Part shown: positions 21,656 through 31,354 of the stretch, one piece after another | Layout of the letters: each line of letters opens with the position of its first letter | Position numbering within the stretch: the first letter of the stretch is position 1 | Origin: an uncultured Clostridia bacterium | GTDB taxonomy: Bacteria > Bacillota > Clostridia > Christensenellales > Borkfalkiaceae | Length of the DNA: 47,517 nt | Direction of reading: 5' to 3' | NCBI GenBank assembly: GCA_947627955.1 | Contig: CANQXZ010000007.1 | Location: 1 to 47,517 of the forward strand | Position numbers and translations under genes: made by a program | The notes under the pieces: generated by a model | What the model saw: only the letters and a program-made list of their open reading frames with translations | Told to the model about the DNA's origin: nothing | The model's database searches: none

Positions 21656-21732
21656 TGAGGTGTAGCGCAGTTTGGTAGCGCGTCTGGTTAGGGACCAGAA
21701 GGTCGTGGGTTCAAGTCCCGTCACCTCAACCA
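21656..21732 (+). tRNA. tRNA-Pro (anticodon AGG), CCA encoded
   Basis: 77 nt. Acceptor TGAGGTG pairs with CACCTCA. The D-stem is GCGC/GCGC, the anticodon stem TCTGG/CCAGA with loop TTAGGGA, giving AGG. The proline identity base G37 is present. An A at position 34 is unusual for bacterial tRNA-Pro. The 3' CCA is encoded. Confidence 0.9.
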
Positions 21733-21771
21733 ACAAAGCAGTGCGGACTTTTGTCCGCACTGCTTTGTTTT
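21733..21771 (+). terminator. Terminator of tRNA-Pro
   Basis: Long perfect stem (ACAAAGCAGTGCGGAC and complement) followed by TTTTAT. Part of it recurs at 22195-22219. Confidence 0.85.
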
Positions 21772-21870
21772 ATGGAGCATTGTGACGGGACTTGAGGGTG
21801 GAGACGCGAGCGAGAGCGAGCGGTTTGCGTTTGATTAGCTCGCAAACGATAAAGTTTAAAACGCAAACTG

Positions 21871-22034
21871 AACAGCACAGTGCGCTGTTCATCGGCTCGG
21901 CGGCAGTAAGGATTTTCAGCCGCCTCGGTCACCGCAAACGCTTTTTTGCGTTTGCTCGTCTCATACGGATAAACAGCGGGTGTCCGCTGTTTAATGAAAT
22001 CCGTATTCGTCGCGCCGCCAAAGGCGCAAGTCCC
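21871..22034 (+). repeat. Shared core of the tRNA-linked elements, copy A
   Basis: About 164 bp, near-identical over its right 125-130 bp to 24423-24577. It contains the hairpins GCAAACGC/GCGTTTGC and AACAGCGG/CCGCTGTT and ends GGCGCAAGTCCC. Copy A has a few extra bases after the second hairpin. Confidence 0.85.
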
Positions 22035-22117
22035 GTAGTATTTTTGAAAAATGTGTTTACTACACATAAACCGCTGTTTTTTTGTTGAGGCGACGGGTTA
22101 TTGCCTGTCAAGTCCCG

Positions 22118-22181
22118 TAAGGCTGCGCCTTCGATACGAAAGGCTACTGCCTTCGGTGCGAAAGGCTACCGCCTTCGATAC
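22118..22181 (+). repeat. Three tandem units of about 21 bp
   Basis: Imperfect units of the form AAGGCT(N)3-4GCCTTCG(G/A)T(A/G)C, each able to form a small AGGC/GCCT hairpin, inside the tRNA-Pro element. Confidence 0.7.
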
Positions 22182-22247
22182 AACACCTCAACCAAAAAAG
22201 CAGTGCGGACTTTTGTCTGCCGCGCATTTTGTATATCGCGTTAAAAT

Positions 22248-22793
22248 CTATAACAGCCTTATCAGTTTGCAATTGGGGATACCGAACGACCAGAAATCTT
22301 TAAGCGGAATGTTCTTTATGCGGCAGATAATGCTCAGATTCATGGCGCCGTGCCCCACTATGAGCACGTCCTTGCCCTGCTCCGTGAGCGGGAACGCCAC
22401 CTCCCGCAGAAATTCGCCCGTGCGGGCGAACAGCTCGCCAAAGCTCTCCCCTCCCTCGGGCGGGACATAAGCGGGTGGATCGTTGAAAAAGAGCCGCATA
22501 GGTCCGCCCTTGGCGGGAAAACTGTCCTCGGTTCCCTCGCAGACGCCGAAACTCATTTCGGTCAGCCGTTCGTCGACAATTACGGGCGTTCTGCCGCCCG
22601 CCACTATCACGGCGGTCTCCCGCGCGCGTGACAGAGGCGAACAGTAAATAACGTCCAAATGAATGCCGCCGCACTCCTCCGCCGCCCTTTCAGCCATTTT
22701 TCTGCCCGCTGCGTTCAGGGGAACGTCTGTCCTTCCCTGCAATCTGTGCGCCGCGTTCCAATCGGTCTCGCCGTGCCGCATAATGTATAACAT
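22248..22793 (-). CDS. Histidine phosphatase family protein (phosphoglycerate mutase-like)
   Basis: 181 aa. The catalytic RHGET motif is at residues 6-10 (MLYIMRHGETDWN), with LQGRTDVPLN, CSPLSRARETA and the second active-site His in LIVGHGAMN. The branch includes CobC-like, broad-specificity and phosphoglycerate mutase-like enzymes; the substrate is unknown. The ribosome site is weak. It is divergent from the MBL-fold gene. Confidence 0.9.
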   Translation of the reverse strand: MLYIMRHGETDWNAAHRLQGRTDVPLNAAGRKMAERAAEECGGIHLDVIYCSPLSRARETAVIVAGGRTPVIVDERLTEMSFGVCEGTEDSFPAKGGPMRLFFNDPPAYVPPEGGESFGELFARTGEFLREVAFPLTEQGKDVLIVGHGAMNLSIICRIKNIPLKDFWSFGIPNCKLIRLL

Positions 22794-22834
22794 ATTTACA
22801 CCCGAAAACTTTCAGCCTTATTTTTTCACACGTG

Positions 22835-22863
22835 ATTATAGCACATAGCCGCCGACAAATCAA
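22835..22863 (-). promoter_or_regulatory. Promoter of the histidine phosphatase gene
   Basis: TTGATT (22858-22863), 17-bp spacer, TATAAT (22835-22840). Confidence 0.72.
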
Positions 22864-22894
22864 CGGCAAGCCGCATAAATTTTGTTCAAACCGC

Positions 22895-22922
22895 TTGCAT
22901 CCGAGCGGCTTTGTGCTATAAT
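22895..22922 (+). promoter_or_regulatory. Promoter of the MBL-fold gene
   Basis: TTGCAT, 16-bp spacer, TATAAT; the leader is about 14 nt and has no clear ribosome site. Confidence 0.68.
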
Positions 22923-22942
22923 GAAACAAAGAACGGCAAATT

Positions 22943-24139
22943 ATGACAGAATCGATAAAAATTTTCAATGTGAATTTCGGCGATTGCTTCACTCTGGAAG
23001 CTAAAGAGGGCGGTCCGGCGATGCTCGTGGACTTCGGGAGCACGAGAAGGCTTGACGACAATGTCATAGCTGCGGTAAACCGCACGCTCTACAGAGCCCC
23101 GGAAAGATATCTTATGTTGACCCACTTCCACGCCGACCATTACAGCGGTATTTCAAGGCTCTGTAGAAATCTTTTCTTCAACGAGCTGTATCTGCCCGAC
23201 TTCTTTTCGAGAGGCATAATACGCTTAAACTTTGCGCTGCTCGAGTTTTTAAGCGAAAGAAGCGCAGTGTATAATTTTGCCTACAATATGTTAAACTCTG
23301 TGCCCGTGCTTGCGCCACATTTGGATCCCAACGGGATCATATCGTTTGTCAAGCGGCACGACGTCATAACAAACTCCATCGACAGATACAGAATATTGTG
23401 GCCCGACAATACCCAATACCGCAATAATTTCTATAATGCGGGATACTCCGACGAAGAAGCCGACGAACTGTTTGGCGAATTGATCTCATACTACGGCACG
23501 CGAGATCTTTATGAAATGATAACGGCGCGCGCCGACTCCTTCTCCCGCCCTATCCTACAGCTTATCAACGGCAGCGAACGGGCGGGAGCCAAGACGTTGA
23601 ACGGCGGCGACGCTCTCGTAAGGGCGACAAATGATATGCGCTCCATTTTGCTTTCGGCGACGGCAGAGAAAACGAAGCCCATAAAACACCTGAACAGTTC
23701 GCTGAGAAGAAAAATTTCGGCATTTCAGAATAAGATGTGTTTGTGTTTTGACAATGCTTCCGAAAACACGGTTGATTTGGATAAAAAAGTGCTGTTTTTG
23801 AGCGACATAACGAGAGAAAATTTCAATATCATAACGGCAGGCGCCGATAATATGAAGCTGTGCAGCGCATACTCGGCGATAAAAGTCCCTCACCACGGCA
23901 CGAAAGATTATTTCGTGAATAATCTCCCCCAAAGTTGCTTCATGATGATCTCAAACGGCAACGCGGGCAGCGGAAGCGGTTGGATGATCTCTGCTCTCTA
24001 TGGTCTGCATTATTCTACGCGTGGATTTATCTGCACAAATTACGAAAATACGTGCGACTACTATCTTGCGGACAGGCAATGTTGCGCATCGCAAATATGC
24101 TGCGGCATTGCCTCTCCATATTACCAATTGGAACTTTGA
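22943..24139 (+). CDS. MBL-fold metallohydrolase-like protein, unknown role
   Basis: 398 aa. The N-terminus has the metallo-beta-lactamase metal motif LTHFHADHYSG (His61, His63, Asp65, His66), preceded by MLVDFGS. A long insert (about 100-250) separates it from a second part with VLFLSDI and KVPHHGTKDYF, the later metal ligands of MBL proteins of the ComEC/Rec2-like or phage/defence-linked kind. The tail is Cys-rich. No partner gene is adjacent. It lies between the two tRNA-linked elements, in what looks like accessory DNA. A nuclease or phosphodiesterase role is plausible but unproven. Confidence 0.75.
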   Translation: MTESIKIFNVNFGDCFTLEAKEGGPAMLVDFGSTRRLDDNVIAAVNRTLYRAPERYLMLTHFHADHYSGISRLCRNLFFNELYLPDFFSRGIIRLNFALLEFLSERSAVYNFAYNMLNSVPVLAPHLDPNGIISFVKRHDVITNSIDRYRILWPDNTQYRNNFYNAGYSDEEADELFGELISYYGTRDLYEMITARADSFSRPILQLINGSERAGAKTLNGGDALVRATNDMRSILLSATAEKTKPIKHLNSSLRRKISAFQNKMCLCFDNASENTVDLDKKVLFLSDITRENFNIITAGADNMKLCSAYSAIKVPHHGTKDYFVNNLPQSCFMMISNGNAGSGSGWMISALYGLHYSTRGFICTNYENTCDYYLADRQCCASQICCGIASPYYQLEL

Positions 24140-24183
24140 CCGCCGCCATATAGCAAACTTTTTGAATTATGGCGCGGGAATGC

Positions 24184-24212
24184 TTGACAAAAAACAATGG
24201 ATTTATTATAAT
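24184..24212 (+). promoter_or_regulatory. Promoter of tRNA-Leu
   Basis: TTGACA, 17-bp spacer, TATAAT: perfect boxes. Confidence 0.88.
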
Positions 24213-24224
24213 CTCATTGTTTTT

Positions 24225-24307
24225 GCGGACGTGGCGAAATTGGCAGACGCGCAGGTTTCAGGTTCCTGTGGGAGACCATGGGGGTTCAAGTCCCTTCGTC
24301 CGCACCA
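24225..24307 (+). tRNA. tRNA-Leu (anticodon CAG), CCA encoded
   Basis: 83 nt with a long variable arm. Acceptor GCGGACG pairs with CGTCCGC and the loop TTCAGGT gives CAG. The closing pair of the anticodon stem appears to be T-T. CCA is encoded. Confidence 0.9.
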
Positions 24308-24347
24308 ACCGCCGCCTCGGGCATTTTTGCCCGAGGCGGCGGTTTTT
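24308..24347 (+). terminator. Terminator of tRNA-Leu
   Basis: Very strong 15-bp stem ACCGCCGCCTCGGGC with its complement, followed by TTTT. Confidence 0.88.
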
Positions 24348-24422
24348 CTCAATCGTATGTTAAGGGACTTGAAAGGGAGGTTTGTCCGCGGATTCTACCG
24401 CGGACTTGGCAGCCATCGTCTT

Positions 24423-24577
24423 AACAGCACAGCGCCCCATTTGCTCGGCGTCTGTAAGGAATTTTCAGCCGCCTCGGTCACCGCAAACGCTTTTTTGCGT
24501 TTGCTCGTCTCATACGGATAAACAGCGGGTGTCCGCTGTTTATCCGTATTCGTCGCGCCGCCAAAGGCGCAAGTCCC
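24423..24577 (+). repeat. Shared core of the tRNA-linked elements, copy B
   Basis: About 155 bp matching 21871-22034. The junction bases after GCGCAAGTCCC follow the local tRNA (TTCG here, GTAG in copy A), so the core is constant while the edge copies the host tRNA. Confidence 0.85.
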
Positions 24578-24600
24578 TTCGTCCGCACCATTTTAAACCC

Positions 24601-25363
24601 GAATTGAACCATTACAGAATAACAAGACTCTCAAACTTAATACTGCGGTACAGATAATCAACGGGCGGTTTTAACTACTTACAGAATAACAAGACTCTCA
24701 AACACTTATGATACGTTTAAGCGTGATTCTAAAGTTTTAACTACTTACAGAATAACAAGACTCTCAAACATGCTATTAAGTCTATCTTTTACATCTTGGG
24801 TTTTAACTACTTACAGAATAACAAGACTCTCAAACAAGAGATTTAGCAGGACAATTTTTAAACTCGTTTTAACTACTTACAGAATAACAAGACTCTCAAA
24901 CCGCCCCGGGACGTTTTGAGCCCTCGCGCGTGTTTTAACTACTTACAGAATAACAAGACTCTCAAACGTCCAAAACTTCGTCTATACTGTCAAGCGCGTT
25001 TTAACTACTTACAGAATAACAAGACTCTCAAACTTCTTCATGTGCGCCTCCTGTTATCGTTTAGTTTTAACTACTTACAGAATAACAAGACTCTCAAACG
25101 TGTTGGAGCCGCTTCGTGAGCACGTCGTCGTTTTAACTACTTACAGAATAACAAGACTCTCAAACTGGTGTTGGTTTTAATGATGTTGTTCCTTAGTTTT
25201 AACTACTTACAGAATAACAAGACTCTCAAACACACCGAAAAAGGCTTTTACAAATTCACGAGTTTTAACTACTTACAGAATAACAAGACTCTCAAACCTA
25301 GTGTTCTTCCTAATGTTCAAAAGGGTGGTTTTAACTACTTACAGAATAACAAGACTCTCAAAC
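24601..25363 (-). CRISPR. CRISPR array, type II-A: 12 repeats, 11 spacers
   Basis: Repeats are 36 bp, reading GTTTGAGAGTC...AGTTAAAAC in crRNA sense (leftward). Eleven are identical. The repeat at 24601-24636 has about seven changes in its crRNA-3' part, as expected of the oldest, leader-distal repeat. Ten spacers are 30 nt; the oldest (24637-24667) is 31. Repeats start at 24668, 24734, 24800, 24866, 24932, 24998, 25064, 25130, 25196, 25262 and 25328. Direction is set by the leader next to csn2, by the degenerate far end, and by complementarity to the tracrRNA. Confidence 0.98.
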
Positions 25364-25423
25364 CTCAAATCGGGGAGGCGTGAAAGTGCATATAGACGGT
25401 ATGGTCATTCCGTAAGCAGAATT
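25364..25423 (-). promoter_or_regulatory. CRISPR leader with type II-A anchoring heptamer
   Basis: The last seven bases before the first repeat (25364-25370) read ATTTGAG in crRNA sense, the known leader-anchoring sequence recognised during type II-A spacer integration. The transcribed leader is about 54 nt. Confidence 0.85.
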
Positions 25424-25452
25424 ATTTTATCAGATTCAGCCGTAATTTTCAA
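25424..25452 (-). promoter_or_regulatory. Promoter of the pre-crRNA
   Basis: TTGAAA (25447-25452, inside the csn2 3' end), 17-bp spacer, TAAAAT (25424-25429). It points into the array. Confidence 0.75.
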
Positions 25453-26131
25453 GAATTTCGCACAAATCTTCGGTAATTATTATCGCCCTTTCCTCCGCAA
25501 GAAGAGGGCGCACCTTACTGTGCTCTATAAGTAACAACCCGACTTTTTCGAGTGCGCAGTGATGATACAGCAACTTCAAATCGTTGTCGCACAGTACAGT
25601 TTTAATGTTTATAAACACAAAAAACTTACAATGTTTAAGTTCCACCAGCGCATTGATATAGCAGATGATCTTTTCCAAAAGCGTATCGTAAGTTTTTTCG
25701 AAGTGCAAATCAGTACATTTGAAAATATTTTCTATTGTTGCCTCGCCGTATGTCAGCGAAAATGGCAACGCGTCAAAAAGGTCGGCATAGAGCTGTGCTA
25801 TTGCCGTATTGACCGAAGATAATCCCAACTGCGCATTGCCGTATCTGCACACCGCTGCAAGATTTTTGAAAAGCAAGTTCAGCACCTTTTTGTCATTCAG
25901 ATCAAAATGAAATGGATCGCAGATGATACAACCCTCGGTTTCAGCGGAAATCTGCTTGCCATCCCTTAAAAAACTCAGTCCGCTTTCCTCTCCGCCGATA
26001 CTTTTATCGAACATATCCACGAATTTAAAAAACTCATGCGGGTTCTCAATAATGAGCAACTGAACGCGTCCGCAGGAAAGAATTAAGGGCGTTTCCAGCG
26101 ATGCGTGATAAACCATTGCTATATCGTCCAT
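25436..26131 (-). CDS. csn2: CRISPR adaptation protein Csn2 (type II-A)
   Basis: 231 aa, about the size of short-form Csn2. The C-terminal segment LLLIEHSKVRPLLAEERAI followed by IITEDLCEIL is the family's most recognisable part. Csn2 forms a ring around DNA ends and is needed with Cas1, Cas2 and Cas9 for spacer capture. GAGG precedes the ATG, one base after the cas2 stop. Its presence defines subtype II-A. It is the last gene of the operon; the pre-crRNA promoter starts inside its 3' end. Confidence 0.92.
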   Translation of the reverse strand: MDDIAMVYHASLETPLILSCGRVQLLIIENPHEFFKFVDMFDKSIGGEESGLSFLRDGKQISAETEGCIICDPFHFDLNDKKVLNLLFKNLAAVCRYGNAQLGLSSVNTAIAQLYADLFDALPFSLTYGEATIENIFKCTDLHFEKTYDTLLEKIICYINALVELKHCKFFVFINIKTVLCDNDLKLLYHHCALEKVGLLLIEHSKVRPLLAEERAIIITEDLCEILENYG

Positions 26132-26132
26132 T

Positions 26133-26453
26133 TCAAACCTCTATTATTCTGTCGGGCGAATCTATGACAAGCTGCTGTTCTTCACCCACGAGATATTCGA
26201 TACGCGAGAATTGGTTTTCGGTTATTTCCAAAAGTTCCACCACACCGTCTGCAGGTAGATTGTTCCTTATCCGTTGTTTTACAGCAAGACTCGTGACATT
26301 ATTTATTACCAGCCTTGAATAAACCGATTTCTGCATCATAATGAACCCGTTGCGCACGAGGTACTTATGAAATCTGGCATATTCCTTTCTTTCCCTGTCA
26401 GTCTGCATCGGCAGATCGAAAAAAACAATAAGACGCATAAATTTATAGTTCAT
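26133..26453 (-). CDS. cas2: CRISPR-associated endonuclease Cas2
   Basis: 106 aa. RLIVFFDLPMQTDRERKEYARF is the typical Cas2 ferredoxin-fold start, with the conserved Asp13. With Cas1 it forms the integrase complex that inserts new spacers at the leader end. The first ATG overlaps the end of cas1 by 11 bp; the ATG at codon 6 (26438) gives the more usual family start and is a fair alternative. Confidence 0.96.
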   Translation of the reverse strand: MNYKFMRLIVFFDLPMQTDRERKEYARFHKYLVRNGFIMMQKSVYSRLVINNVTSLAVKQRIRNNLPADGVVELLEITENQFSRIEYLVGEEQQLVIDSPDRIIEV

Positions 26454-27321
26454 TTGACCCCACTTTCGGAAAAATCACGCGCGACGGATCGTTCTCGTTC
26501 AAAGCCGTGATAACGCTCCGGGCATAGTCGCGTATTGCAACGTCGAGCGTGGTGCGTTTGCCGCCGTGCATCACTTCGGCGTTCAGAATATCCGCCATCT
26601 TGCGTTTAAAATCAATGTCTCCGTCCTCTATCGAAAGCGCGCGTCTGTCAACAAACGGGCGCAATGGTTCCATAAGATCGCAACCGAAGTTGAAGTCGTT
26701 GAATTCGTTTTTATGATGTATGCCCATTTGAGTACAATAGCCACAGGCAACTATTTCCCTGTTGCATGCAGAAAGCACGACGGCGTAACCGTAATTGAGG
26801 CAACCGTTCAAAAAGCCGCCCGTCCTGCGCGAATTGTATTCACCGAGGATGCAGTTGAAATACACCTTCGCCGCGTGCCCTTCGCGGTTGGTCGCGTCGT
26901 CGGGTTGCACTTCCTGCGCGTACCCAGTCAGCGTTTGCGCCTGATCGGCAAATCCCGCCGAGAGCAAAACCGACGCTTGTTCAGAAATTTTTCTCCGCAC
27001 TATACTCTGCCAGATTTCGGACTTGATGCGATCGCTCCACTCTGTCTGCATTTTATACTTTTTCGAGGTATTCACCGTACCATAATAGGGCAACAGTTCG
27101 GAACACGGGTTGCATTTCTCGTCGCAGAAAATGACTTTTATGTTTCTGCGCGTAAGTTCGCACAAAAGCGCCGCAGTAAGTGATACCGCCGTGTCGGCGA
27201 CTATCAAAGTGTTTATTTCATTGACGAATATATGTCTTTCCTGTTCGCCGCGGATTATAAGACTGTTAAGGCGGAACTCCAGCTTGCAACGCGACTTTAT
27301 CACCACAACGCGGAATCCCAT
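26443..27321 (-). CDS. cas1: CRISPR-associated endonuclease Cas1 (integrase)
   Basis: 292 aa from the ATG at 27321, which has AAAGGAGG 7 nt upstream; an upstream in-frame extension overlaps cas9 and lacks a site. The active-site Glu147 is in NREGHAAKVYFN, and the later His/acidic ligands are in GIHHKNEFNDFNFGCDLMEP. It catalyses spacer integration. It lies 13 bp after cas9 and overlaps cas2. Confidence 0.97.
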   Translation of the reverse strand: MGFRVVVIKSRCKLEFRLNSLIIRGEQERHIFVNEINTLIVADTAVSLTAALLCELTRRNIKVIFCDEKCNPCSELLPYYGTVNTSKKYKMQTEWSDRIKSEIWQSIVRRKISEQASVLLSAGFADQAQTLTGYAQEVQPDDATNREGHAAKVYFNCILGEYNSRRTGGFLNGCLNYGYAVVLSACNREIVACGYCTQMGIHHKNEFNDFNFGCDLMEPLRPFVDRRALSIEDGDIDFKRKMADILNAEVMHGGKRTTLDVAIRDYARSVITALNENDPSRVIFPKVGSNEL

Positions 27322-27334
27322 TATATCCCCTCCT

Positions 27335-30300
27335 TTATATCTTCCTCTCCTTTTCGTCCAAACCGCAGGGCGAAACATGCACGACCGAAAATTCCAGATC
27401 GGTGATATTTTTATTGATCGTCAGCGTGCCGCAACGCCCGCCTTCACCGAGAAGAGTCAGATCAGAGGTCTCGGCATTGCATTTCAAGAACTTCAAAATC
27501 TGTATGAGCACTTTTGACTGTCCGAAAACTGTAAGCGAAGCGAATTTGTTTTCGGCGTTTTGCAGAACAGCACGGAAGTGCACAGCCCCCGAAATTCCGC
27601 CGTATATCTTTTTGGAAAGTTGCTTCAATATTTTTTGATAGAGTTCCAGATTTTGCTCACGGTCTATTTTAAGTTTAACTTCGCCGAAACGGTTGGTATG
27701 CATAACAAAAACTTCGTCCGAGAGATCTTCGCTTTTACGCGTTTTTTCCGAATCGAGCAATTTGCCGAGGGCTTTGACATACTCGTCCGTCTTTTTGTCG
27801 GCAAACCACTGCACTGCATTATGCAAAATAATCTGCGAGCCCGTAATACCCGCTATATACGCGGGTGACCCATTTATCCTGACAAGCGACTTTTTGCGCA
27901 AGCAGGGCACCAAAAGCTCGGGGTCGGCAAGCCCGCATTTCTCTTTCAGATAGGTAAGAATTTTTTGAACGTCTTTGTGTGCGTTATAATCGACAAGTAC
28001 GGGGATCGCCTCGATAGTCTTAATGGTCCTGCCTTTTTTATCCTTTGAACGGACGATCGCAAAATATGCGGTAGTCAGCGACTTGTATCCGCCGTATTTT
28101 AATACGTCTGAAACAGCCCCCTTCCCCTTTAAAGGCGCACCTATGCCGCCGTCTTTTTTACCGCAGGGCTGTTGGTTATAAAACTCACCGCCGTCGATAA
28201 AGGAATACCTCGTGACTGCCATGCTCGTGCGAGCAACGGTTGAGAGCACGACGGAGAGTGAACTACTGCTATCCCATGCTCCCGGAACGTCGTAGGTAAA
28301 CAGCTTGTCGAGATCTATCCGCCTTTGCGAGCCGTCGCTCTCCCTGCGCCTGAAATAGTCGGCAAGGCGTGTGAAGCGCACGTCGTATACGTTGCCGACT
28401 ACAATATTGAGATATGCGTCGCGGGCGTGATGCAAATCGTTGGTCAAGCGGCATTTGGGAACACCGAATTTATCCCTGAACGCCGAGACATTCGCCGCTT
28501 TGCTGTAAACTATCTTCGTTCCGCTTCCGCCGAACTTGCGATTCAAAAGCTCGGCGACCGCCTTTGCCATTTGGTTGGTATATACGAGCTGCCTGTTGAC
28601 GAACCCCTCGTAATCCTCGTCGGTCAGAGGTTCTCTTCGGGTAAGTCTCGCCCACTTCTCGTCGCTTATGAGCTGTTTTTCGCGCAAAAGTTTCCAAAAC
28701 GGCAGTTGGTCGCTAAATCCGTCCGCAAGCGGATATATATCAGACTTTTCGACATTCTTTGAGCGCAGGACAAGCACTTTGTTGTCGAGGCTGTCGTCTT
28801 TTACGAGCGAACGCGGAACTATGTGGTCGACGTCGTACAGATCGGAATTCAGTTTCAAGGGATCTATACTTGCGCCCGAATACATACACCTTCCGAGTTG
28901 CCGATAGTAAAGATACAGCCTTTCGCTCTTAAGGTCGCCATCCGTTCTTTCCTTCAATTGGTTTTTCAGATCGTCTATACCGTCGACAGTTTCAAGAAGA
29001 GCCGAAAGCTGTTCCTTTCTCGAGACCGTCCGTCTTTTGGGCTCGTCTCCGGACGGTTGGCGGGTCACTTCAACAAAAATCTTGTCGGGGTTGCGTCCGA
29101 GGGCTTTTACGTATTCATCGACCATGACGAGAGACTGCCATATACCCCGTCTGAGCTGAGGCGCAACGTAAAGTTCCTGCACGTCGCCATATCCTACCTC
29201 GCCGTCATTTACGCCGTTGTGTTCGGCAATGGCTTTGCTGAAAGAATATCTTTCGCCGAACAGTATCTCGTTGAGGTTTAAGTTGGTGCGATACAGCTCC
29301 GAGAGCACGGTGTATTTTCTGCCGTCGGGGGCTTCGCCTCCCTCCGTTCCTGTCAGAAATTCGAGCGAAAGCCTTCCGAAATCCTTAAAGAGCGTAAGCC
29401 CCTTTATCCACTTGATGTTTTCGGTTATCTCCCTATAAGCGGAATACTTTTTGAGCAGGTGCGCCTCGACCAGGCTCTTATCGGTACTTATGGTGTGCCA
29501 AAGAATTATGTCCTCGCAAATTTCAGGGTGCCGGTCGACGAATTCGCCCAGCTTGCCCTTTAACGTTATGTACGAGCGCATACTCGCCTTAAAATCGCCA
29601 TCCTTGCCCGAGAGCTCTAACCTCTCACCCTTGCCCGCATAGCCGTGGGATATAAGATAACCAGCGATCTTTTTGTCTGTCACGCGCGGTTCGACGAGAA
29701 AAAGGTTGTTGAAAAGTTCCTGTTTCAACCGTATCGATACGGGTTCGCCGTTTATCCGCAGTTTGTTCAAAGTGTTCAAAACATCGAACGCCTGATAGTA
29801 CATGGAGCACTTCGGCAATACGTCCTCGTCGAACAGATAACTGCATTTGCCCGTCATTTTGCGTATGAATTGCTCGTTGCTTTTTTCAAGGTCGACCATC
29901 TTCTCAAAATTCCACGGCGTTATTCTGCCTCTGCGGCGGACTATCCAACTGTTCGGGCTATGCGGATTGAGGGGACCGACGAAATAGGGTATGCGGAAGA
30001 GGAACACCGAGCGTATCTTTTCAGCCGGGGTAAGCCCGTCGCCGTCCTTAACGCCAAACGCGGGGAAGTCGCGGCAAAGATTTGAAAGAATTTTATCAAG
30101 CTCGTCAAGGTTGAGTTGGTGAGGAAAAAGCCCGTTGTCGGCGTTCAGAATTTTGGGTAAAAACGTGCGTGCGTTGAGTTCGCCCGTGAGTTTTTCCCAT
30201 AATGCACGCCCCTCCACGTCCTCGGGCGGAGTTTTGAGCACTTTCAGAAGATATTTTGCAAACTCGTCGTAAGAGGTACACTTTTTGACTTTGATCTTTT

Positions 30301-31354
30301 TGCGGGAGGGCTTGGTATAGCCTATATAGCTGACGTAATTTGCCCCCTGCGTAGTGCTTTTAAATACTTCACAATACAGATCGTGGGAATAGTATTTCGA
30401 AATAAGTCTTTTCAGATCGGCAAGATCGCTCTTATGCTTATCGTATATCCCCGTCATCGCCTGCGACAAGGTCTTGCTTCCACTGAAGATTTTTTCAAGG
30501 CGTATGAACTTATATATCTTTCTTAGGCTCTCGAAGAGCGCGAAAGTGTCACCAAGCGTCTCGGCAAGGCTGTCGAATTCTTCATCGGGCATATCGAGTG
30601 AAAAACTTTCCTTTGCGCAGTCCTCAAAAATATCCGAAGGCTTGCCCTTGCCGCCAAGCGCAAAGGTGACGACGGCTTTCATGCTACGCGATTCGCCGAA
30701 AAGTTTTTGAAGCTCCCTCTTCTTGTCTGTCATGCCCTTTATGGGATCGACTGCGATATCGAGGAACATTCGGGCAAGGTTCACATCTAAAACGGGCGCG
30801 GCGTCTGAAAGTTGCGCAGCGACAGAGTTAAACTCTTCAAAAAGAGCCGACAGGTCTCGTTTCCCCACCGAATACGAACCATCGAAGAGAAAATGTCCGC
30901 GATATTTTATTATGTGGTGCAGAGCGAGATAATAGAGTCTTAAATCTGTCGAACCGCAGTCGATCAGCCTTTGCCGGAGGTGAAAGATAGTCGGGAACTC
31001 TGCATAGAACTCCCTGTCGGTATAGCCGCCGTCGGCAAACAGTGTAAACCTGGGAAAGCCGTCGGGCTTATCTCCTAAATACAGGGAGCTGTATTTAAGC
31101 CTCAAAAAGAACTGTTCGTCCGTCATATACGGTGCAAACAGCTCCTGCAACAGCGTTATGCGTTCTTTGCGCCTTGATATTCTTTTGCGGGCGGTGCGGA
31201 ATTTTCTGCGCTCGCTTGCATCGCTCGATGGGTCGGAAAGGCGCGTCGCCCAAAGGTCTTTCCTCTTTGCGCGCAAAAGACGATAATTTTCATCGGTGCA
31301 TGCAATTCCCACCGAATCGGTACCTATATCCAACCCCAAATAAAATTTTTCCAT
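27335..31354 (-). CDS. cas9: CRISPR RNA-guided endonuclease Cas9 (type II-A)
   Basis: 1339 aa, within the II-A size class. Asp9 of RuvC-I is in LGLDIGTDSVG. The Arg-rich bridge helix (about 50-75: SERRKFRTARKRISRRKER) follows, then a long REC lobe. RuvC-II has Glu762 (KIFVEVTRQ). The HNH domain has His844 in YDVDHIVP and Asn867. RuvC-III has His976 and Asp979 in HHARDAYLN. The PAM-interacting region forms the C-terminus. All nuclease residues are present, so it should cut both strands. AAAGGAG is 8 nt before the ATG. It needs the tracrRNA encoded just upstream on the other strand. It is the first gene of cas9-cas1-cas2-csn2. Confidence 0.98.
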   Translation of the reverse strand: MEKFYLGLDIGTDSVGIACTDENYRLLRAKRKDLWATRLSDPSSDASERRKFRTARKRISRRKERITLLQELFAPYMTDEQFFLRLKYSSLYLGDKPDGFPRFTLFADGGYTDREFYAEFPTIFHLRQRLIDCGSTDLRLYYLALHHIIKYRGHFLFDGSYSVGKRDLSALFEEFNSVAAQLSDAAPVLDVNLARMFLDIAVDPIKGMTDKKRELQKLFGESRSMKAVVTFALGGKGKPSDIFEDCAKESFSLDMPDEEFDSLAETLGDTFALFESLRKIYKFIRLEKIFSGSKTLSQAMTGIYDKHKSDLADLKRLISKYYSHDLYCEVFKSTTQGANYVSYIGYTKPSRKKIKVKKCTSYDEFAKYLLKVLKTPPEDVEGRALWEKLTGELNARTFLPKILNADNGLFPHQLNLDELDKILSNLCRDFPAFGVKDGDGLTPAEKIRSVFLFRIPYFVGPLNPHSPNSWIVRRRGRITPWNFEKMVDLEKSNEQFIRKMTGKCSYLFDEDVLPKCSMYYQAFDVLNTLNKLRINGEPVSIRLKQELFNNLFLVEPRVTDKKIAGYLISHGYAGKGERLELSGKDGDFKASMRSYITLKGKLGEFVDRHPEICEDIILWHTISTDKSLVEAHLLKKYSAYREITENIKWIKGLTLFKDFGRLSLEFLTGTEGGEAPDGRKYTVLSELYRTNLNLNEILFGERYSFSKAIAEHNGVNDGEVGYGDVQELYVAPQLRRGIWQSLVMVDEYVKALGRNPDKIFVEVTRQPSGDEPKRRTVSRKEQLSALLETVDGIDDLKNQLKERTDGDLKSERLYLYYRQLGRCMYSGASIDPLKLNSDLYDVDHIVPRSLVKDDSLDNKVLVLRSKNVEKSDIYPLADGFSDQLPFWKLLREKQLISDEKWARLTRREPLTDEDYEGFVNRQLVYTNQMAKAVAELLNRKFGGSGTKIVYSKAANVSAFRDKFGVPKCRLTNDLHHARDAYLNIVVGNVYDVRFTRLADYFRRRESDGSQRRIDLDKLFTYDVPGAWDSSSSLSVVLSTVARTSMAVTRYSFIDGGEFYNQQPCGKKDGGIGAPLKGKGAVSDVLKYGGYKSLTTAYFAIVRSKDKKGRTIKTIEAIPVLVDYNAHKDVQKILTYLKEKCGLADPELLVPCLRKKSLVRINGSPAYIAGITGSQIILHNAVQWFADKKTDEYVKALGKLLDSEKTRKSEDLSDEVFVMHTNRFGEVKLKIDREQNLELYQKILKQLSKKIYGGISGAVHFRAVLQNAENKFASLTVFGQSKVLIQILKFLKCNAETSDLTLLGEGGRCGTLTINKNITDLEFSVVHVSPCGLDEKERKI

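What the first reader, a model, noticed from the sequence alone, without database searches (positions are those of the whole stretch)
21722..24590. Non-coding elements next to tRNA genes that share a core and copy the host tRNA's 3' end
Seen directly: after tRNA-Pro and after tRNA-Leu there is a gene-free element holding the same core of about 155-165 bp (21871-22034 and 24423-24577). Each element starts, just past the tRNA terminator, with an inverted copy of its own tRNA's T-arm (21783-21795; 24362-24373) and ends with a direct copy of that tRNA's 3' end (22184-22194; 24570-24590). The core is constant but the edges are tRNA-specific. That is what tRNA-targeted integration or a tRNA-primed copying process would leave. 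I know of no named element with this layout, but I cannot search.
Basis: partly seen in the sequence, partly recalled or inferred. Interest (0 to 1): 0.8.

Follow-up and report, generated by a model that had tools for sequence, protein, structure and literature searches.

The report
Hairpin cassettes lodged in tRNA genes
Short non-coding DNA cassettes sit just behind tRNA genes in a family of gut Clostridia, each bearing a forward and a backward copy of the end of its own tRNA, and they share their layout with a poorly explained repeat known behind some E. coli tRNA genes.

Summary
A non-coding unit of about 200 bp sits behind tRNA genes in one Clostridia family. Layout: tRNA, perfect hairpin (terminator-like), 12-13 nt inverted copy of tRNA positions 56-67/68, hairpin-rich core ending GCGCCGCCAAAGGCG, then positions 56-76 of the same tRNA again. 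In 47 of 71 places with a tRNA upstream all 21 nt match that tRNA (shuffled labels: mean 3.9, maximum 10). Nearly identical cores sit at different tRNAs of one genome with both edges changed, and orthologous tRNAs are patchily occupied. Closest known: the RtT repeat of enterobacteria, where I find a constant core with tRNA-specific direct copies at E. coli tRNA-Tyr, -Pro and -Arg (inverted copies at Tyr and Pro, weak at Arg), without sequence homology to the Clostridia unit. Best reading: small non-autonomous mobile cassettes that use the tRNA T-loop as attachment site, bring a replacement tRNA end plus terminator, and build arrays. No mobilising enzyme was found; integron-like use of a folded strand is inferred. 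New variant of a known but poorly explained kind.

The parts
21656..21732 (+). tRNA-Pro(AGG), intact host gene
21733..21769 (+). perfect terminator-like hairpin directly after CCA, taken as part of the cassette
   Evidence: I4: 17-bp arms, 100%
21782..21795 (+). inverted copy of this tRNA's T-loop / T-stem 3' strand (14 nt exact)
   Evidence: I12
21796..21895 (+). left part of the cassette core (GGGTGGAG... hairpins)
   Evidence: (L075)
22012..22026 (+). constant right end of the cassette, GCGCCGCCAAAGGCG
22027..22036 (+). partial direct copy of tRNA-Pro from C56 (CAAGTCCCGT)
   Evidence: D4
22108..22118 (+). further partial direct copy of the tRNA-Pro T-loop
   Evidence: D4
22184..22220 (+). 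distal direct copy of the tRNA-Pro acceptor end plus half of the terminator (95%)
   Evidence: D3
24225..24307 (+). tRNA-Leu(CAG), intact host gene
24308..24344 (+). perfect terminator-like hairpin directly after CCA
   Evidence: I6: 17-bp arms, 100%
24362..24373 (+). inverted copy of tRNA-Leu positions 54-65 (12 nt exact)
   Evidence: I16
24374..24443 (+). left part of the cassette core (variant)
24444..24554 (+). same dispersed palindromic repeat nested here too; ends approximate
24555..24569 (+). constant right end GCGCCGCCAAAGGCG
24570..24590 (+). direct copy of tRNA-Leu C56-A76 (21/21)

Best explanation
The units are small non-coding mobile cassettes that use the T-loop of tRNA genes as attachment site. 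A cassette is: [tRNA positions 56-76] + terminator-like hairpin + linker + 12-13 nt inverted copy of positions 56-67/68 + hairpin-rich core ending ...GCGCCGCCAAAGGCG. Placed between T55 and C56, it rebuilds the tRNA with its own 56-76 copy and terminator, so the gene stays functional, and pushes the old 3' end behind itself as the distal direct copy. Repetition gives arrays growing at the tRNA. The inverted copy pairs with the first bases of the cassette, or of the next 3' end, so a single strand folds into a branched hairpin with the attachment point at its foot, as in integron cassettes. Shown: anatomy, tRNA specificity of both edges, conserved pairing, patchy occupation, nearly identical cores at different tRNAs of one genome, arrays. 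Inferred: insertion at 55/56 rather than right after A76, growth at the tRNA end, use of the folded strand, an enzyme acting in trans, and that the inverted copy is rewritten on retargeting (for example by hairpin-templated correction). The same way of working is proposed for enterobacterial RtT repeats.
For: Edges: 47 of 71 places with an upstream tRNA match its last 21 nt fully, 55 of 71 at 18 nt or more; shuffled tRNA labels give mean 3.9, maximum 10 full matches. Inverted copy of 12-13 nt in 43 of 50 aligned units; shuffled mean 4.7, maximum 12. Second sample with only C56 and CCA fixed behind the right end (partly the same genomes): 24 hits in 11 of 396 genomes of the order, all 24 T-loop-like, all in one family (11 of its 34 genomes, 0 of 362 others), G57 tRNAs included; of 13 hits with a tRNA called upstream 12 match it 21/21 and one 20/21. 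Structure: 18 of 35 pairs change on both sides, 98.7% of cells paired, 0 of 500 shuffles as high, slid versions at most 45%. Retargeting: Ser(GCU) and Pro(CGG) of one Gallimonas MAG have cores 98.3% identical with different matching edges; 23 same-genome pairs at different tRNA ends average 85% core identity against 78% (149 pairs, other genome, same end) and 74% (2524 pairs, both different); 0 of 2000 label shuffles as high. Occupation: a direct copy within 900 bp in 11 of 28 Leu loci and 5 of 29 Pro-query loci. Carried hairpin: arms of 11-20 bp directly after CCA in 69 of 71, 0 of 71 shuffled; three units in tandem at tRNA-Ser, then a different terminator. The related loci L146 and L088 differ by an extra unit next to the tRNA.
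Against: No enzyme was found. Y1 (RAYT-type) transposases hit in only 11 of 41 genomes and not in the own genome. Tyrosine recombinases hit in 36 of 37, but I see no one consistent extra gene: G002, which has units, has a single hit. No excision circle or transposition event was observed; nearly all data are MAGs, which break at repeats. In 19 of 58 units the direct repeat is 50 nt or longer, running through the terminator or beyond, which also fits tandem duplication, or duplication of 56-to-terminator on insertion. Different core types in one array can share terminator and linker (L101), which a simple cassette model does not predict. The L088 arrangement could arise by duplication and loss. 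16 of 71 distal copies keep only 12-17 matching bases; 31 of 102 places had no ARAGORN tRNA within 1,500 bp upstream. Three of 53 units had no recognisable inverted copy. Nearest core neighbours are mostly from another genome and another tRNA end (49 of 74). One of the 102 (Chloroflexi, L143) looks like a chance match.
Confidence: 0.6

Rival explanations
1. Functional RNA: the units encode a structured RNA (a decoy or regulator) whose closing stem is the tRNA 3' strand, kept by selection and duplicated in place with the tRNA end.
For: Strong compensatory change in core helices as well as in the tRNA-linked stem; GGGA, GAGA or GCGA loops in 21 of 50 units by a crude scan that found no hairpin in 18. 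E. coli rttR is annotated as a small RNA after tyrV, and one PGAP record calls RtT an sRNA processed from the tyrT transcript.
Against: A terminator-like hairpin lies between tRNA and unit in 69 of 71 cases, so the unit should mostly not be part of the tRNA transcript. A direct copy was found in only 11 of 28 and 5 of 29 orthologous loci. No RNA data were available.
Confidence: 0.15
2. RNA-primed or tRNA-primed copying: a reverse transcriptase or polymerase copies the tRNA 3' end from A76 to the T-loop during insertion, leaving both the inverted and the direct copy.
For: Both copies end at about the same T-loop boundary, and several long direct repeats end just after the terminator, where a transcript would end.
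Against: The encoded CCA does not separate RNA from DNA copying. The one RT seen near a unit (L098) is closest to the defence protein Drt2; RT families were not searched for across genomes.
Confidence: 0.1
3. No mobility: local tandem duplication of the tRNA 3' end, with hairpin-templated repair creating and sharpening the inverted copies and ordinary recombination spreading the core.
For: Successive units of different core type at one tRNA share linker and terminator (L101). Direct repeats are 50 nt or longer in 19 of 58. Quasipalindrome correction is a known mutation process (recalled).
Against: Nearly identical cores at different tRNAs need a move between loci. Unit length is nearly constant: tRNA end to distal copy 180 bp, sd 10, n = 40.
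Confidence: 0.15

Closest known systems
RtT RNA / tyrT 178-bp repeats of enterobacteria (Rfam RF00391)
   Same: In E. coli K-12 repeats of 178 bp follow tRNA-Tyr, each with the last 19 nt of the tRNA (from A58) and a 10-nt inverted copy of its T-stem. At proK the same core carries the last 19 nt of tRNA-Pro and inverted T-arm pieces, 9 nt exact. In argVYZQ the same core motif, by eye, is followed by the last 18-19 nt of tRNA-Arg in three copies. Copy number at tyrTV varies between strains.
   Different: No sequence homology found and no RF00391 hit in 21 genomes of the window's order. Boundary is A58 instead of C56. By eye no hairpin lies between tyrV and its unit.
Integron gene cassettes with attC sites
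   Same: Units in arrays anchored at one site; the end of each unit folds with the start of the next into a branched hairpin whose sequence varies while pairing stays.
   Different: IntI not tested for, no gene cargo seen, attachment site is a tRNA T-loop, and the outer stem is tRNA-specific and 12-13 bp long.
Phage, ICE and island integration into tRNA T-loops
   Same: Direct repeat from T-loop to tRNA 3' end, with tRNA function restored.
   Different: Units of about 200 bp leave no room for an integrase; one core occurs at many different tRNAs.
REP/BIME and other small palindromic mobile repeats
   Same: Non-coding, hairpin-rich, perhaps mobilised in trans.
   Different: REPs are not confined to tRNA genes and copy no target sequence (recalled); Y1 transposases were not detected in the own genome.

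Membership tests
RtT (RF00391) | match to the RF00391 covariance model | tested here: not met
   0 of 21 genomes; no RtT match in the window or in L141, L104, L084
RtT (RF00391) | repeat of about 170-200 bp behind a tRNA, each holding that tRNA's 3' end | tested here: met
   for the Clostridia unit; for E. coli
RtT (RF00391) | inverted copy of the tRNA T-arm between tRNA and core | tested here: met
   (Clostridia, 43 of 50 at 12-13 nt); E. coli Tyr 10 nt, Pro 9 nt, Arg only 8 nt in one of three copies
RtT (RF00391) | core sequence homology | tested here: not met
   local alignment scores within the shuffled range
RtT (RF00391) | transcribed and processed RNA | not testable with these tools
   no transcript data
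Integron cassette | integron integrase IntI and attI | not tested
   only the general tyrosine recombinase family PF00589 was searched
Integron cassette | foldable single-strand site formed by unit end plus next unit start | tested here: met
   closing helix 97.5% paired, 6 of 11 pairs with changes on both sides
REP/RAYT | Y1 transposase in the genome | tested here: not met
   own genome no hit; 11 of 41 genomes hit
tRNA-integrating island or phage | integrase inside the element | tested here: not met
   unit length about 200 bp

The most novel reading that the evidence does not exclude
RtT repeats and these Clostridia units belong to one general, so far unrecognised mode of mobility: tRNA-anchored hairpin cassettes, arisen or spread in distant phyla with unrelated cores, which change tRNA target by rewriting a 12-13 nt stem in themselves to match the new tRNA, through recombination of a folded strand by a trans-acting enzyme.
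Probability: 0.35. Interest if true: 0.82.

Novelty: new variant of a known kind. Interest (0 to 1): 0.62.

Why it matters
The repeats behind E. coli tyrT have long been treated as a local oddity or a small RNA (recalled). Finding the same architecture, with unrelated sequence, at many tRNAs of Clostridia, and tRNA-specific ends at three E. coli tRNA families, turns them into a class with a testable rule and points to DNA mobility rather than a tRNA-Tyr-specific RNA function. It may also explain clusters of partial tRNA copies and assembly breaks at tRNA genes, and it gives a simple target-matching stem whose enzyme can be sought.

Tried and rejected
Rfam search for a known family around the units: tRNAs above threshold, otherwise only matches below the families' gathering scores. 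Y1 transposases and tyrosine recombinases: no consistent partner seen. The RT near the unit in L098 is closest to Drt2, a defence protein, so I do not count it as the mobiliser. A frame with a recombinase zinc ribbon in L083, and sequences in L133, L140, L155 and L108 that run into the same tRNA-Leu tail (only L083 was put to a family search), suggest a separate integrative element. Group I or II intron and casposon readings were considered from the anatomy and dropped for lack of a supporting part; they were not tested by a search. Homology between RtT and the units was tested and not found. TRIP1 was a recalled lead; the passages seen of PMC10888264 do not tie it to tRNA genes.

Literature: ten searches. 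I saw listings, and passages of PMC12306157, PMC2267715, PMC2658671 and PMC10888264; no paper was read whole. The listings show no paper on tRNA-targeted hairpin cassettes, but some lists were cut at 15-25 rows and subscription papers are not held. The classic tyrT papers are known to me by recall only.
Full report
1. The observation. ARAGORN and Rfam agree on tRNA-Pro(AGG) at 21656-21732 and tRNA-Leu(CAG) at 24225-24307. Directly after each CCA lies a perfect 17-bp hairpin. Then comes an exact inverted copy of the tRNA's own T-arm 3' strand (21782-21795, 14 nt; 24362-24373, 12 nt), and later direct copies of the tRNA 3' end (24570-24590, 21 of 21; for Pro a 37-nt copy at 95% at 22184-22220 plus partial T-loop copies). 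The two elements share a stretch of 90% identity. The sequence is as described.

2. What the shared stretch is. Searching 61 genomes with the Leu core gave matches in 29; many of them cover only parts of query positions 23-120, others only the right end. Of the 28 relatives' loci fetched (L009-L036), 17 hold no ARAGORN tRNA in the fetched flanks (a few of these match only the right end). Reading them shows a dispersed palindromic repeat (CTCGGCGGCAG...CGGTCACCG-hairpin-CTCATCTC-hairpin-CTCGTC) that is nested in both window units (the same nesting in L075). The tRNA-linked unit is what surrounds it: inverted T-arm copy, then GGGTGGAG..., hairpins, and the right end GCGCCGCCAAAGGCG followed at once by C56 of the tRNA. 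It is seen un-nested at tRNA-Leu(AAG) of the same genome, where the 21-nt copy is exact. At tRNA-Thr(GGU) another core type also ends at C56 with an exact 21-nt copy.

3. Extent and specificity. The junction pattern (right end plus CAANTCC) occurs at 102 places in 94 loci of GTDB genomes. Nearly all are Clostridia MAGs, among them Candidatus Coproplasma, Gallimonas and Borkfalkia; one record is labelled Alphaproteobacteria (L075, perhaps a mis-binned contig) and one Chloroflexi match (L143) looks like chance. In 71 of 102 there is a tRNA within 1,500 bp upstream on the same strand: Leu, Pro, Ser, Thr, Val or Gly. In 47 of 71 all 21 bases equal that tRNA's 56-76, and in 55 of 71 at least 18 do. 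The pattern itself fixes six of the first seven bases, so shuffling tRNA labels is the control: mean 3.9 full matches, maximum 10, in 2000 shuffles. The other 31 places include contig starts and partial tRNA copies. A second pattern, fixing only C56 and the final CCA behind the right end, was run on 396 genomes of the order, partly the same MAGs (the hits in G168 repeat those of L104 and L081): 24 hits in 11 genomes, all 24 reading C-N-A-N-T-C at the T-loop, all in the window's family (11 of 34 family genomes, 0 of 362 others); the reversed pattern gave one hit. Of 13 hits with a tRNA called upstream, 12 match it 21/21 and one 20/21; the others lie near contig starts or behind partial tRNAs. 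Some have G57. The right end alone (15 bases) also hits 2 of 24 other-family genomes among 61; those two were not examined.

4. Anatomy. Of 53 units with a spacing of 140-190 bp, 50 had a recognisable inverted copy and were aligned (dropped: L092, L122, L147). The inverted copy, counted from C56, is 12 or 13 nt in 43 of 50 and never longer; the other seven have perfect runs of 8-11 nt. Shuffled labels give mean 4.7 and maximum 12 units at 12 nt or more. The consensus fold has 35 pairs, 98.7% of cells paired; 18 pairs change on both sides: 6 in the tRNA-linked helix, 5 in helices 2 and 3, 7 in helix 5. None of 500 shuffles reaches this, and slid structures pair at most 45%. The structure was predicted from this alignment, so paired-cell percentages lean upward; the double changes are the better evidence. 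A hairpin with arms of 11-20 bp starts within 12 nt of A76 in 69 of 71 tRNAs, and in 0 of 71 shuffled stretches. The distance from tRNA end to distal copy is 180 bp, sd 10 (n = 40 with at least 20 of 21 matches and under 230 bp).

5. Movement. Orthologous tRNAs are patchily occupied: a direct copy within 900 bp in 11 of 28 Leu loci (own genome and one other-family genome included) and 5 of 29 loci of the Pro query. In one Pro-query locus a Gly tRNA was read instead, and several loci have short or no flanks, so these are lower bounds. Units carry their own hairpin: in L104 three units in tandem share one, and a different terminator follows the last copy. In 58 units with an upstream copy, the direct repeat is at most 30 nt in 37, 31-49 nt in 2 and at least 50 nt in 19; the long ones are tandem copies or include the terminator. 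In one Gallimonas MAG the Ser(GCU) and Pro(CGG) units (L129, L095) have cores 98.3% identical, each with edges matching its own tRNA. In another MAG the cores of L104 (Ser) and L081 (a Pro-type copy behind a partial tRNA) are identical. Over 74 cores (of 102 places; 27 had no recognisable core and 1 was too short), the 23 same-genome pairs with different tRNA ends average 85% identity, against 78% for 149 pairs from other genomes with the same end and 74% for 2524 pairs differing in both; 0 of 2000 genome-label shuffles reach the observed mean. Nearest neighbours are mostly from another genome and another tRNA end (49 of 74). L146 and L088, 95% identical upstream, read tRNA-A-T and tRNA-T-A-T, where A and T are two unit types: an added unit next to the tRNA, or duplication and loss. 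Within one array, different core types can share linker and terminator (L101), which a simple cassette model does not predict.

6. Enzyme. Units of about 200 bp leave no room for a recombinase gene. Y1 transposases hit in 11 of 41 genomes and not in the own genome. Tyrosine recombinases hit in 36 of 37, five in the own genome, with no common extra gene evident to me from the table. The partner is unknown.

7. Known relatives. The E. coli K-12 tyrTV locus has 178-bp repeats, each with the last 19 nt of tRNA-Tyr and a 10-nt inverted copy of its T-stem. RF00391 (RtT) marks these and also a unit after proK in E. coli and in K. aerogenes. There the core is shared with Tyr, the direct copy is the last 19 nt of tRNA-Pro in E. 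coli (18 nt in K. aerogenes), and a 9-nt inverted piece is Pro-specific, of the T-stem 5' strand. After proL, glyU, proM and leuZ the direct and inverted scan found no such copy. So in E. coli too a constant core carries the end of the local tRNA at three tRNA families; the inverted copy is clear at two. Of 5,426 E. coli genomes 4,695 have a match to the tyrTV repeats, median 4 places, some of which may be pieces of one array. A Salmonella comparison lists rtT RNA as a 175-bp variable-number repeat (passage of PMC2658671). The Clostridia units show no RF00391 match (0 of 21 genomes) and no sequence homology to RtT, so they are not members of that family; they share its layout. A genome of another family of the order (L189) shows a third core with a 176-bp period and a C56 boundary, without an inverted copy by the exact 9-nt test.

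8. Judgement. Tandem duplication alone does not explain one core at many tRNAs, and an RNA function alone does not explain terminators between tRNA and unit or patchy occupation. The best reading is a tRNA-anchored mobile cassette, with the reaction unknown. The integron-like folded-site step and the rewriting of the inverted copy are my inference. The finding is a new variant of a known but poorly explained kind.

Noticed in passing
window 24610-25380 and 25436-31354: A type II-A CRISPR array begins about 20 bp after the Leu unit; cas9, cas1, cas2 and csn2 matches lie on the minus strand beyond it.
   Followed up: partly
window 22943-24139: A metallo-beta-lactamase-fold protein between the two tRNAs, with weak matches to LmuA and RTasMBL defence models.
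   Followed up: no
L055 about 1225-1500 and L047 1600-1692 (own genome): Copies of the 5' part of a tRNA-Ala-like gene (to the D-loop) joined to the dispersed palindromic repeat, upstream of an intact tRNA-Ala and behind tRNA-Val: a mirror-image arrangement at tRNA 5' ends.
   Followed up: no
L067 89-700 (own genome, tRNA-Leu CAA): Four tandem units of about 150 bp, each with TTCGACCCCG of the host tRNA, a further core type.
   Followed up: no
window 22119-22183; L135, L009, L027: Displaced tRNA-Pro 3' copies are interrupted near position 65 by small hairpin repeats (AAGGC...GCCTTCG...).
   Followed up: no
L083, L108, L133, L140, L155: Sequences ending in the tRNA-Leu tail GGTGCACCA; the L083 frame has a recombinase zinc ribbon, suggesting an integrative element that uses the tRNA-Leu 3' end.
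   Followed up: partly
L098 1519-2847: A Drt2-like defence reverse transcriptase upstream of a unit at a displaced tRNA-Pro end.
   Followed up: partly
L088, L095, L146: A second unit type with boundary near A58 and an inverted T-arm copy (GGTTTGAACCAC) resembles RtT in layout more than the main type does, but showed no sequence similarity to RtT.
   Followed up: partly
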